Of a DNA stretch of 64,000 nucleotides, positions 18,240 through 21,309 are shown piece by piece (the stretch's first letter is position 1; each line of letters begins with the position of its first letter). The DNA is from Myxococcales bacterium (GTDB lineage Bacteria; Myxococcota_A; Bradymonadia; Bradymonadales; Bradymonadaceae), in contig SKON01000115.1 in the NCBI GenBank assembly GCA_007120035.1, positions 1 to 64,000 of the forward strand. Reading direction: 5' to 3'. A program made the translations under genes and the position numbers. The notes below the pieces were generated by a model. The model was given only the letters and a program-made list of their open reading frames with translations. It was not told where the DNA came from and made no database searches.

Positions 18240-19034
18240 TCAGAGCACGTCTTGTAGACGGGCGATGGACAGGTCCAGATACTCTTCGCTCTGGTCGATG
18301 CCCACGTAGTTTCGTCCCTCTTCTACCGCGGCCACGCCCGTCGTCGACGAGCCGCAGAAGGGATCCAGGATCGTGTCTCCCGGGTTGGACGCTGCCAGCA
18401 CGATCCTCCGCAAGAGCTTCATCGGCTTCTGCGTCGGGTGCTTACCGTGCACCTTCTCAGCCTTTCGGGGGGACATGATATTCCACAGATTCTTCATCTG
18501 CTTGCCCCCGTTCATCTCCTTCATCGTCTTGTAGTTGAAAGTATACCGGCTGTCCGTGTCCCGGGCCGCCCAGATCACCGTCTCCGTGCCGTGGGTAAAG
18601 TACCGGCACGACAGATTCGGGGGCGGGTTCACCTTGAACCAGGCGATGTCGTTGAGCACCTTGTACCCTAGGGTCTGCATGGCGAACCCCAGGGAGTAGA
18701 TCACGTGGTGGGTTCCGCTCACCCAGATCGTCCCGTCGGGCTTCAGCAGCCGCTGGCAGGCTTGAAGCCACCGCAGGTTGAACTCATGGTTGGCCTGAAC
18801 CCCCATGGAGCGATCCCAGCGGCCCTTGTTCACCGACACCATCCGCCCCGACTTACAGGTCACCCCGTCATTGGACAGAAAGTACGGGGGATCGGCGAAG
18901 ATCATCTCGAACTGCTCGGGCTCCATGGACTCCAAGAGCTCCAGAGAGTCTCCCTGATAGAGCGTGATCCCCTGGGGGTGCGAATAATACGGCGCCGCGT
19001 CAAACCGCGGCGTCTCCTGCCTGGTGGCTTCCAT
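18240..19034 (-). CDS. Orphan DNA methyltransferase, DpnA/HinfI-like adenine class
   Basis: A 264-residue enzyme. The catalytic motif DPPYFLSNDG (motif IV, about 53-62) comes before the SAM-binding motif DPFCGSSTTG (motif I) near the C-terminus, the order of beta-class amino-methyltransferases. The sequence around motif IV and KHPTQKP resembles, from memory, DpnA-type N6-adenine methylases that modify GATC, so N6-adenine is likely and GATC is a reasonable but untested target. No restriction gene is adjacent, suggesting a regulatory or solitary enzyme. The ATG at 19034 follows AGGGA by five bases, and the open frame to 19205 lacks support. The upstream region holds a GATC palindrome and a DnaA box. 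Confidence 0.82.
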   Translation of the reverse strand: MEATRQETPRFDAAPYYSHPQGITLYQGDSLELLESMEPEQFEMIFADPPYFLSNDGVTCKSGRMVSVNKGRWDRSMGVQANHEFNLRWLQACQRLLKPDGTIWVSGTHHVIYSLGFAMQTLGYKVLNDIAWFKVNPPPNLSCRYFTHGTETVIWAARDTDSRYTFNYKTMKEMNGGKQMKNLWNIMSPRKAEKVHGKHPTQKPMKLLRRIVLAASNPGDTILDPFCGSSTTGVAAVEEGRNYVGIDQSEEYLDLSIARLQDVL

Positions 19035-19545
19035 CGACTTCCCTGTGCGCTGCACTCCGTCGCCCTTCTCTCCTTGAGGGGGGAACGAAATGGGCCATCC
19101 GTGGCCAGTTGCGAAATACTTCCCTGTCTTCGCCAGGGCCAATCTTCCCGCTGCGAAAGAATCGCCCGGCACTCGGGTCCGACCACGGTCTCCCGGGGTC
19201 TTCACCGAACCTTCGGCAAGTCAGATCTCCGACACCTGACGTCTCGCATCCCTGCGAGATCTCTTCGGATCACCACTCATCATGCGCGCTTGCCGAACTC
19301 TTAGTGAGGGTATGTCGACCACCGATCTCTGTCAAGGAATCACCCCAACCCTTACCCCTTGATCGATCGATAGGCGATCGATCACATGGGGTTATCCACA
19401 GGTTTTCCCCAGATCTGACGCCGAATTCCGATCGTGGGCCACTACGCCACGAAGCACGCCACCACCAGTATACTTAGGCTCGACTAACTTATTTCACCAC
19501 CCGCACCTAAACCACTCCCGCGACTGGCCTCCCCCCGTGGTCGAT
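19035..19545. other. 511-bp intergenic region with replication-origin-like features
   Basis: No coding gene is evident. The region holds a 9-bp inverted repeat (TTCGGCAAG at 19212-19220, CTTGCCGAA at 19289-19297), a short hairpin (TCTCGCA 19242-19248 / TGCGAGA 19253-19259), a GATC palindrome and a perfect DnaA box near 19360-19411. A leftward -10-like TATACT lies at 19467-19472. It is the 5' flank of the methyltransferase gene and the 3' flank of the PilZ gene, and is locally more AT-rich than its surroundings. Confidence 0.55.
19360..19411. promoter_or_regulatory. GATC palindrome plus DnaA box cluster
   Basis: TGATCGATCG (19360-19369) and CGATCGATCA (19375-19384) are perfect 10-bp inverted repeats around a 5-base spacer, giving four GATC sites within 25 bases. 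TTATCCACA, the consensus DnaA box, lies eight bases further at 19392-19400, and a degenerate box TTTTCCCCA at 19403-19411. The combination resembles a methylation-sensitive DnaA-binding region. Confidence 0.6.
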
Positions 19546-21309
19546 CTACTTGCCGAAGAACTTCGACATGATCCCCTTCTTCTTCTTCTTCTCCGGGGTG
19601 GGCACCTCGAAGGGATTGGGCCCCACCGCGGCCGGGGGCAGGTCATCGTCGTCGCCCATCAGCTCGTCGAAGATATCCCCTTTCGGCTCCTCTTCCTTCT
19701 GGCCCTCGAGCTCTTCCTTGGCGCTGGCGATCAGCGACGACAGGCTGTCCTCCTCCAGGCCATCGTCGGAGGGCTCCTCGAGGTCCCGCCCAGCCGCCAG
19801 ATTCAGCTCCATATCTCGCCCCTCATCCTCCATCTCCAAGAGGGAGAGGATATCGCTGCCGTCATCGTCGGCCACGGCCGGCTCCGGAGCTGTAAACCCC
19901 AGGAACTCCTCCTCCTTGTCCTCCTCTCCCCCGGCTTCGAACGGGTCGTCCTCGAACTCCACGGGGACCTCCTCGGCACCGGAGGAATCTCCGCCCAGAG
20001 ACCATCCCAGGTCGTCGCTCTCTTCCTCCAGGCCTTCTCCCAGCTCCATCGGCTCCGGGGGAAGGCTTGCCTGTGCCGGGGCGGTGGGCGGAGACTCCTG
20101 GAAGCTCCCCACCGAGGCCTCCTCCAGCACCGCCGACTCGCTCAGCTCCATCCCGGGCTCGGAGAACTCTACGGCCCCGGCTTCGATAGGATCGGAGAGC
20201 TCAAAGGGCTCCGATGGCTCCTCGAAACTTTCGGCTTCGGGGACCTCGTCGTCTTCCTCCGCAGGTTCGGCGAGCTCCATGGGCTCTGACGGTTCCTCCA
20301 CGAGTTCCAGGTCGAGCTCTTCGGCCGGCTCATCGAAGAACCCACCACCGTCACCTCCGAATACATTGTCGAAGATCTCGTCGAGCTCGGCCTCGTCACT
20401 CCCGGCGGTAAATTCCTCGAAGTCCCGGGTCCCCGACTCGTCGACGGTCCCATCGAAGGAGAGCACCTTGATCCCCGCCTCGGTCTCCTTGATCGCCTCC
20501 GGTTCGGCGATGGGAGCTTGCGCCTCTTCCGGGGCCTCTTCCTCGTCCTCCTCTTCGGCGGCCCCGACATCGAGCCCCCAATCGGCGTCATCGAAGAGCT
20601 CACCGAGATCGTCTTCCACGTCCGCGTCCGCAAGGGCCTCCTCTTCATCGGATTGGTCCGTCAGCCCCCAGGAGTCGGACACCTCCGCCGCCACACCAAT
20701 GGGATCCGCCTCGGGCTCTCCGAAGATCTCATCCCCTGACGTCGCTGGCTCCTCGGCGACCTCTTCTTCGGCGGCCTCCGCCGTGGCCAGGGGCAACTCC
20801 GCTTCCGCCGTGTTGTCTTCCTCCCCGTTCAGCCCCAGAAGCTCTCGAGTCTGGGCGTCGAGCTCGTGCTCCGCCGTCTGAGATCCCTCTTCGAACCCCG
20901 CGGCGCTCCGAAGGCTGTTGGCCTTCTCCGCCTCGATCACTCCGGTGTTGCCCTCTCCCTCCTCGGCGGGGGCCTCCTCGGTGGCCGACGACTTCTTCTC
21001 CACCACCTGATCCACCAGGGACTTCGACTCCTGGCTGAGCTTCGTGAACTTCACCAGCATGCCCACGGGTCCGCCGTCGTTCTCGACCCCCTTCAACTGG
21101 CGGACCACCCCCTCTCCCAGAAAGGCGGACGTACCATCGGCCAGCAAGAACTGAAACCGCACCGTGGTTCCCACGGGCTTCAGCTTCTGGGCTGCCATGG
21201 GCACAAACATGCCCCCTCGGGAAATGTACCGCCCGTACCCATCTACAAACTCCTGAAGGGAGTTGTATCGAAGCCGAGCTCGAATGGCGGAAAAGTTCTC
21301 GTCCGTCAC
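19546..21309 (-). CDS. PilZ-like domain protein with long acidic tail
   Basis: A 587-residue protein. The first 95 residues (LRYNSLQEFVDGYGRYISRGGMFVPM, GTTVRFQFLLADGTSAFLGEGVV) match the myxobacterial-type PilZ domain, a fold that often binds cyclic di-GMP, although the RxxxR arginine pair is not obvious. About 440 residues of Glu/Ala/Ser/Pro-rich low-complexity sequence follow, then a basic tip (KKKKKGIMSKFFGK) that could be an amphipathic membrane or partner-binding helix. The start is a GTG with AGAGG eight bases ahead. It is the last gene of a leftward pilT-barrel-PilZ set, so a role in type IV pilus or gliding control is inferred. Confidence 0.75.
   Translation of the reverse strand: MTDENFSAIRARLRYNSLQEFVDGYGRYISRGGMFVPMAAQKLKPVGTTVRFQFLLADGTSAFLGEGVVRQLKGVENDGGPVGMLVKFTKLSQESKSLVDQVVEKKSSATEEAPAEEGEGNTGVIEAEKANSLRSAAGFEEGSQTAEHELDAQTRELLGLNGEEDNTAEAELPLATAEAAEEEVAEEPATSGDEIFGEPEADPIGVAAEVSDSWGLTDQSDEEEALADADVEDDLGELFDDADWGLDVGAAEEEDEEEAPEEAQAPIAEPEAIKETEAGIKVLSFDGTVDESGTRDFEEFTAGSDEAELDEIFDNVFGGDGGGFFDEPAEELDLELVEEPSEPMELAEPAEEDDEVPEAESFEEPSEPFELSDPIEAGAVEFSEPGMELSESAVLEEASVGSFQESPPTAPAQASLPPEPMELGEGLEEESDDLGWSLGGDSSGAEEVPVEFEDDPFEAGGEEDKEEEFLGFTAPEPAVADDDGSDILSLLEMEDEGRDMELNLAAGRDLEEPSDDGLEEDSLSSLIASAKEELEGQKEEEPKGDIFDELMGDDDDLPPAAVGPNPFEVPTPEKKKKKGIMSKFFGK

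What the first reader, a model, noticed from the sequence alone, without database searches (positions are those of the whole stretch)
19035..19545. Origin-like intergenic region: perfect DnaA box next to a GATC palindrome upstream of an orphan methylase
Seen: TTATCCACA at 19392-19400, a second degenerate box, and a perfect 10-bp dyad with four GATC sites in 25 bp at 19360-19384, plus a 9-bp inverted repeat and an AT-rich stretch. Known: DnaA boxes and clustered GATC mark E. coli oriC and some DnaA-regulated promoters. Inference: either a replication origin or a DnaA- and methylation-controlled promoter for the methyltransferase gene it precedes.
Basis: partly seen in the sequence, partly recalled or inferred. 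Interest (0 to 1): 0.68.

Follow-up and report, generated by a model that had tools for sequence, protein, structure and literature searches.

The report
Control region of orphan DNA methylase
The stretch is not a replication origin but the conserved control region of a lone DNA-methylating enzyme, packed with what are probably the enzyme's own target sites and followed by RNA hairpins of the kind that the regulator CsrA grips, which would link DNA marking to both self-control and cell physiology in a little-studied group of bacteria.

Summary
The reported motifs are real, but the origin reading fails. Region 19035-19545 is the promoter and ~266-nt mRNA leader (minus strand) of an orphan DNA adenine methyltransferase of Bradymonadales. 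The perfect DnaA box is absent from all 20 relatives' upstream regions, and in a finished relative the gene lies mid-replichore, far from dnaA. The GATC dyad is conserved, 28-48 bp upstream of the -35 in 8 genomes of 4 genera, and a further GATC lies in the promoter spacer in 14 of 16. GATC is the most enriched 4-mer upstream. The enzyme's nearest typed relatives are second methylases of DpnII-type (GATC) systems, so GATC is probably its site; Dam-type methylase, SeqA and DpnII nuclease were not found in this genome. GATC clusters also precede dnaA in several relatives. Best reading: a Dam-like orphan methylase under methylation-sensitive transcription and CsrA translational control. Methylation feedback, CsrA binding and GATC specificity are inferred, not measured.

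The parts
18240..19034 (-). orphan DNA adenine methyltransferase gene, 264 aa, ATG at 19034; beta-class N6_N4_Mtase, related to the second methylase of DpnII-type systems
   Evidence: Pfam PF01555 1.1e-55; CcrM 6pbd 1.6e-57 over the catalytic domain only; 53% identity to the pSRQ700 second methylase; orthologs in 16 of 21 family genomes and 5 of 5 of the sister family
19036..19047 (-). ACAGGGAAGT site over the Shine-Dalgarno, loop starts 10 nt from ATG: predicted CsrA-type site (only two flanking pairs in this genome)
   Evidence: a stem of 3 or more pairs in 14 of the 15 genomes that have the site
19093..19106 (-). hairpin GGCC-ACGGAT-GGCC (ANGGAN loop)
19111..19133 (-). hairpin GCGAA...TTCGC with ACAGGGAAGT in a 13-nt loop
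   Evidence: pairing read from the sequence
19242..19259 (-). hairpin TCTCGC-AGGGAT-GCGAGA (ANGGAN loop)
19212..19297 (-). span of the 9-bp inverted repeat TTCGGCAAG/CTTGCCGAA inside the leader; no function assigned
19307..19312 (-). -10 element TACCCT (weak; relatives have TAATCT, TAGTCT, TAGGCT)
   Evidence: below the threshold of the promoter scan
19324..19327 (.). GATC in the promoter spacer, 8 bp from the first base of the -35; spacer GATC in 14 of 16 family genomes
19330..19335 (-). -35 element TTGACA, 17-bp spacer
19360..19384 (.). GATC dyad TGATCGATCG-N5-CGATCGATCA, centred about 37 bp upstream of the -35
19392..19400 (+). TTATCCACA, DnaA-box match; not conserved

Best explanation
The region is the promoter and 5' leader of an orphan, probably GATC-specific, DNA adenine methyltransferase (a DpnA/M2.DpnII-type enzyme without its nuclease). 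Transcription starts near 19300 on the minus strand from a TTGACA/TACCCT promoter. GATC sites in the spacer and in a dyad at a fixed place upstream would let the methylation state of the promoter (unmethylated, hemimethylated just after the replication fork, or full) set transcription, a feedback from the enzyme's own product. The mRNA leader then presents several ANGGAN hairpins and one such site over the Shine-Dalgarno; a CsrA dimer bridging a hairpin and the Shine-Dalgarno would block the ribosome, so CsrA sets translation. GATC clusters upstream of dnaA suggest that the same mark is used at the origin, a Dam-like regime in a lineage where SeqA was not found. Shown: conservation, spacing, enrichment, hairpin covariation, presence of csrA, kinship of the enzyme. 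Inferred: GATC specificity, methylation feedback, CsrA binding and its sign, use at the origin.
For: GATC: dyad or its proximal arm 28-37 bp before the -35 in 8 genomes of 4 genera; spacer GATC in 14 of 16. GATC is the top-enriched 4-mer upstream (364 against 77 expected, both strands counted; in 21 of 21). In finished genomes the methylase upstream region is the densest GATC cluster of 100 intergenic segments sampled (G008), and dnaA-upstream and methylase-upstream are first and second of 88 (G011). dnaA upstream: 7 of 22 genomes have 6 or more GATC in 80 bp against 0.2-1% of random 600-bp segments. Enzyme: 53% identity to the second methylase of LlaDCHI on pSRQ700, beside a Dam-type methylase and a DpnII nuclease. 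CsrA: 28 ANGGAN hairpins (4 or more pairs) in 16 leaders, shuffles 0.5 (maximum 3 in 200); only GG loops stand out (41 of 69 with 3 or more pairs, against 19 of 204 for the other 15 loop types); 6.9 per kb against 0.03-0.07 per kb background. Stems covary: 165 of 240 paired against 108 when halves are shuffled (maximum 134 in 2000), 11 different 3-bp stems. csrA in 23 of 25 genomes, own copy with L4 and R44. The motif equals the published ANGGAN hexaloop and SELEX consensus (PMC7652899 passages).
Against: No methylome, binding or expression data. The GATC cluster is weak or missing upstream of the methylase in G010, G004, G005, G012 (and G017, cut by the contig end) and upstream of dnaA in 8 of 22 (3 or fewer in 80 bp). 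GATC is not over-represented genome-wide beyond its trinucleotides (Markov ratio 0.69-1.08 in 11 genomes sampled). The own -10 is poor and the promoter scan does not report it. The own Shine-Dalgarno site pairs over only 2 bp, and the whole leader folds only slightly better than shuffles (z -1.5). G010 has no site at the start codon chosen. The own dnaA contig shows no skew change, so its origin is not located.
Confidence: 0.7

Rival explanations
1. A chromosomal replication origin or DnaA-controlled promoter.
For: One exact DnaA box beside a GATC dyad, low-GC stretch.
Against: No skew change in the window; exact box absent in 20 of 20 relatives; dnaA elsewhere; methylase inside a replichore in G008 and 1.6-2.2 Mb from dnaA in G005, G008 and G011.
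Confidence: 0.03
2. The GATC dyad and spacer site are the operator of an unknown transcription factor whose motif happens to contain GATC; methylation by this enzyme plays no part, and the enzyme may read another sequence.
For: Fixed spacing to the -35 is what an activator or repressor site would show; enzyme specificity is inferred only; spacing and number of GATC drift in other genera.
Against: Flanks of GATC vary while GATC itself is kept and multiplied, also in the sister family; kinship to GATC methylases; clusters also at dnaA.
Confidence: 0.22
3. The leader hairpins serve something other than CsrA: an attenuator, another RNA-binding protein, or a ligand-sensing leader.
For: Long leader; no Rfam family matched, and no CsrA binding was measured; two terminator-like sites on the minus strand, one inside the gene and one on the GGCC hairpin.
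Against: The loop is exactly the CsrA/RsmE hexaloop, stems vary freely, and one site lies on the Shine-Dalgarno; csrA is present.
Confidence: 0.1

Closest known systems
Dam/SeqA control of oriC and the dnaA promoter in Escherichia coli
   Same: GATC clusters upstream of dnaA, an orphan adenine methylase, a proposed link from methylation to replication timing (E. coli: 11 GATC in oriC, 8 in the dnaA promoter; PMC10073500 passages)
   Different: enzyme is of the beta-class DpnA/CcrM kind, not Dam (D12 not found in 14 of 16 family genomes); SeqA not found in 25 of 25; the cluster also marks the methylase's own promoter
CcrM of Caulobacter and its methylation-linked cell-cycle circuit
   Same: same catalytic domain and class, orphan, methylase gene under layered control
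   Different: lacks the C-terminal part (264 aa; match covers 5-250 of the 350-position CcrM model); putative site GATC, not GANTC; below NCBI's CcrM cut-off (239 against 830 bits)
Second methylase (DpnA, M2) of DpnII-type restriction-modification systems, e.g. LlaDCHI on pSRQ700
   Same: closest typed relatives, 50-55% identity
   Different: no D12 partner methylase in this genome, no DpnII nuclease in 25 of 25; chromosomal and conserved
CsrA/RsmA-repressed leaders such as glgC
   Same: GGA in a hairpin loop upstream plus a site over the Shine-Dalgarno (PMC7652899 passages)
   Different: the target is a DNA methyltransferase; up to four ANGGAN hairpins in one leader (G011, G008)

Membership tests
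chromosomal origin (oriC) | GC-skew change at the site | tested here: not met
   skew negative on both sides across the window; inside a replichore in G008
chromosomal origin (oriC) | cluster of conserved DnaA boxes | tested here: not met
   one exact box, one with 2 mismatches; none conserved
chromosomal origin (oriC) | replication starts there (marker frequency) | not testable with these tools
   no reads
CsrA/RsmE-regulated leader | ANGGAN loops in short hairpins, more than chance | tested here: met
   28 against 0.5, covariation
CsrA/RsmE-regulated leader | a site over or next to the Shine-Dalgarno | tested here: met
   15 of 16 family genomes
CsrA/RsmE-regulated leader | CsrA with its RNA-binding residues in the genome | tested here: met
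   residues L4 and R44 named in PMC7652899
CsrA/RsmE-regulated leader | CsrA binds and changes translation | not testable with these tools
   needs binding and expression tests
DpnA/M2.DpnII-type GATC methylase | sequence kinship to typed members | tested here: met
   53% over 248 aa
DpnA/M2.DpnII-type GATC methylase | operon with D12 methylase and DpnII nuclease | tested here: not met
   an orphan relative, not a member of the restriction system
DpnA/M2.DpnII-type GATC methylase | methylates GATC | not testable with these tools
   no methylome held
CcrM | NCBI equivalog cut-off and C-terminal domain | tested here: not met
   239 of 830 bits; match covers profile 5-250 of 350
Dam/SeqA regime | SeqA present | tested here: not met
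   0 of 25
Dam/SeqA regime | GATC cluster at the origin | tested here: inconclusive
   clusters upstream of dnaA in part of the genomes; origin located by skew only in G008, coarsely

The most novel reading that the evidence does not exclude
Bradymonadales turned the second methylase of a DpnII-type system into a Dam analogue that marks the origin and its own promoter with GATC clusters, read by a so far unknown SeqA-like protein, and placed it under CsrA, so that carbon/lifestyle signalling sets how quickly new DNA is methylated and thereby the timing of replication.
Probability: 0.3. Interest if true: 0.82.

Novelty: new variant of a known kind. Interest (0 to 1): 0.62.

Why it matters
It would be a DNA-methylation system with Dam-like wiring built from a different enzyme, in bacteria where SeqA was not found, and a strongly predicted case of CsrA acting on a DNA methyltransferase. 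My searches of the held library showed no paper describing such a leader; the nearest is a table in which the transcript level of a Helicobacter pylori DNA methyltransferase changes in a csrA mutant (PMC5368276, passage). It makes two questions directly testable in cultured relatives such as Lujinxingia: is GATC methylated by this gene, and does CsrA set its level?

Tried and rejected
Origin reading: tested by skew, dnaA location and box conservation, and rejected. Structured RNA of a known family: none at gathering scores in the window. tRNA/tmRNA: none. Phage kinship of the intergenic DNA: no match. Genome-wide GATC over-representation as evidence for specificity: not found with the trinucleotide model, so not used. 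Phage homologs of the enzyme: about 32% identity in the rows listed and under 60% in all, uninformative. The Neisseria gonorrhoeae hit (55%) had no annotation under it and was not used. GC skew on the own dnaA contig: no change. G011 skew map: several sign changes, its origin not located.

Rows left out: of the loci found by the methylase searches the leader analysis used 21 near-full-length orthologs and 11 distant homologs (L041-L051); L024-L032 (partial or weak hits) and L052-L054 were not analysed, and L033-L040 appear to repeat loci already held (several match in contig length and place). G013, G016, G018 are one genus and G002, G014, G017 another, so counts of genomes exceed independent cases. 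Start codons were chosen by a simple rule and that for G010 is doubtful. The k-mer background came from intergenic DNA of three genomes only.

Papers: PMC7652899, PMC2877005, PMC4190342, PMC6458302, PMC4687069, PMC10073500, PMC13076061, PMC10306973 and PMC5368276 were seen as found passages only; other papers only as search listings. The SELEX and NMR motif was recalled first and then found.

Full report
What was claimed and what is there. The reported motifs are all present at the stated places. TTATCCACA occurs once in the window against 0.18 expected, and once in 326 kb of this genome's DNA that I held. The dyad with four GATC is exact, and the pattern GATCGATCN7GATCGATC has one exact place in the 5.5-Mb assembly. 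GATC is frequent in this genome (11.7 per kb in 288 kb), so single GATC sites mean little.

Setting. The window lies in a 353-contig assembly whose relatives include Lujinxingia, order Bradymonadales. The intergenic region separates a gene with a weak PilZ-like match (19546-21309, minus; below the curated cut-offs) from a DNA methyltransferase (18240-19034, minus). The methyltransferase looks like an orphan: its neighbours are a DEAD-box helicase and the PilZ-like gene, and no DpnII nuclease was found in this genome or in 24 relatives.

Not an origin. GC skew keeps its sign across the window. dnaA is on contig C45 with rpmH beside it. In the finished relative G008, 20 sampled stretches give positive skew from 0 to 2.0 Mb and negative from 2.25 to 4.5 Mb, with dnaA at 1.2 kb; the methylase at 3.457 Mb sits inside the negative arm. 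In G005 and G011 the gene is 1.56 and 2.18 Mb from dnaA. None of the 20 relatives has the exact DnaA box within 600 bp upstream; two have a one-mismatch word at another place (G017, G022).

What is conserved: the promoter. Orthologs of 73-85% identity were found in 15 other genomes of the family (16 of 21 with this one; the five without are 77-87% complete) and of 62-67% identity in 5 of 5 of the sister family. Upstream of them stands TTGAC(A) with a 16-18-bp spacer and a -10 such as TAGGCT. In 14 of 16 family genomes (not G010, G004) a GATC lies in the spacer, most often 8 bp from the first base of the -35. In 8 genomes of 4 genera the GATC dyad or its proximal arm lies 28-37 bp upstream of the -35. 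Neighbouring genes upstream seem to differ (judged by eye from the flanks), so the element travels with the methylase. A k-mer count made without choosing a motif puts GATC first (364 against 77 expected, both strands counted, 21 of 21 regions).

GATC clusters at two loci. In G011 the two densest GATC clusters among 88 sampled intergenic segments are the one before dnaA (7 in 80 bp) and the one before the methylase (4); in G008 the one before the methylase (4) is the densest of 100, and the DNA before dnaA, outside that sample, has 8. In this genome the DNA between dnaA and rpmH has 7 GATC in 80 bp, some 70 bp from opposed TTTTCCACA and TTTTTCACA boxes. Over 22 genomes, 7 have 6 or more before dnaA, and 8 have 3 or fewer; before the methylase 11 of 21 have 6 or more and 5 have 3 or fewer. 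Random 600-bp segments reach 6 in 1.0% (G000), 0.3% (G008) and 0.2% (G011). The pattern is thus strong but not universal.

The enzyme. It carries the beta-class catalytic domain, matches CcrM over that domain only and lacks CcrM's C-terminal part. Its best plasmid relatives with gene annotation are the middle genes of three-gene systems: Dam-type methylase, this methylase, DpnII nuclease, with 53% identity to the one on pSRQ700, whose LlaDCHI system is named as a GATC system in PMC4190342 (passage). GATC specificity is therefore likely but inferred. Dam-type D12 enzymes were not found in 14 of 16 family genomes including this one; SeqA was not found in 25 of 25.

The leader. From the expected start near 19300 to the ATG the mRNA leader has about 266 nt. 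A scan for ANGGAN hexaloops closed by three or more pairs found two or more in 16 of 16 family leaders, at least one in 4 of 5 of the sister family, and one in 1 of 11 distant homologs. With four or more pairs there are 28 in 4,048 nt; dinucleotide shuffles give 0.5 on average and 3 at most in 200; loops with any other middle dinucleotide sum to 7. The stems differ (GGCC/GGCC, CTCGC/GCGAG, CGTTCGC/GCGAACG, GAC/GTC and others) while the loop stays; pairing at the first four positions is 165 of 240 against 108 when the halves are dealt anew (maximum 134 in 2000). A site lies 9-18 nt before the ATG, over the Shine-Dalgarno, in 15 of 16; in 14 of these it is closed by three or more pairs, but in the window's own gene by only two. 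In 2.25 Mb of strand scanned, pairs of such hairpins within 120 nt were found at 9 of the 10 methylase leaders included and at 7 other places. This is the published CsrA/RsmE site (SELEX RUACARGGAUGU, ANGGAN hexaloop, bridging of a hairpin and the Shine-Dalgarno; passages of PMC7652899). csrA was found in 23 of 25 genomes; the own protein keeps L4 and R44.

How it most likely works. Passage of the replication fork leaves the promoter GATC sites hemimethylated; the state of these sites sets transcription (inferred), and the enzyme made closes the loop by methylating them. CsrA, when free, holds the mRNA closed by bridging hairpin and Shine-Dalgarno (inferred from anatomy; activation instead of repression cannot be excluded). 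The clusters before dnaA suggest a replication role. None of these steps was measured.

Known or new. Every part has a precedent: methylation-sensitive promoters, Dam/SeqA, CcrM, CsrA leaders. The combination, an orphan DpnA-type methylase with a GATC-laden promoter and a CsrA-type leader, was not found in the library with the searches; two recent reviews of bacterial DNA methylation hold no mention of CsrA. I rate it a new variant of a known kind.

Noticed in passing
L108 4490-4560 (G000 contig C45, between dnaA and rpmH): Seven GATC in 80 bp not far from two opposed DnaA-like boxes (TTTTCCACA, TTTTTCACA): the better candidate for this genome's origin, although GC skew does not change on this short contig.
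   Followed up: partly
L006 / L035 position 1-12 (G017): The contig begins inside the GATC dyad, so the assembly may have broken at the palindrome.
   Followed up: no
window 1-64000: Persistent negative GC skew (-0.045 to -0.285 in 2-kb windows), mostly stronger than in the sampled stretches of the finished relatives G008 and G011.
   Followed up: no
L160 1853-3436 and 3906-4241 (G000 contig C25): Near csrA, on the same strand, lies a gene whose product looks like a GH57-type glucan-processing enzyme (judged by eye, not searched), which would fit CsrA's known link to glycogen.
   Followed up: no
L071 10688-10725 (G008): A pair of ANGGAN hairpins just before a gene whose product begins like a Ser/Thr protein kinase (judged by eye): a possible second CsrA target.
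   Followed up: no
G001 contigs C139, C644, C833: Three DnaA N-terminal domain matches in one genome, where most relatives have one.
   Followed up: no
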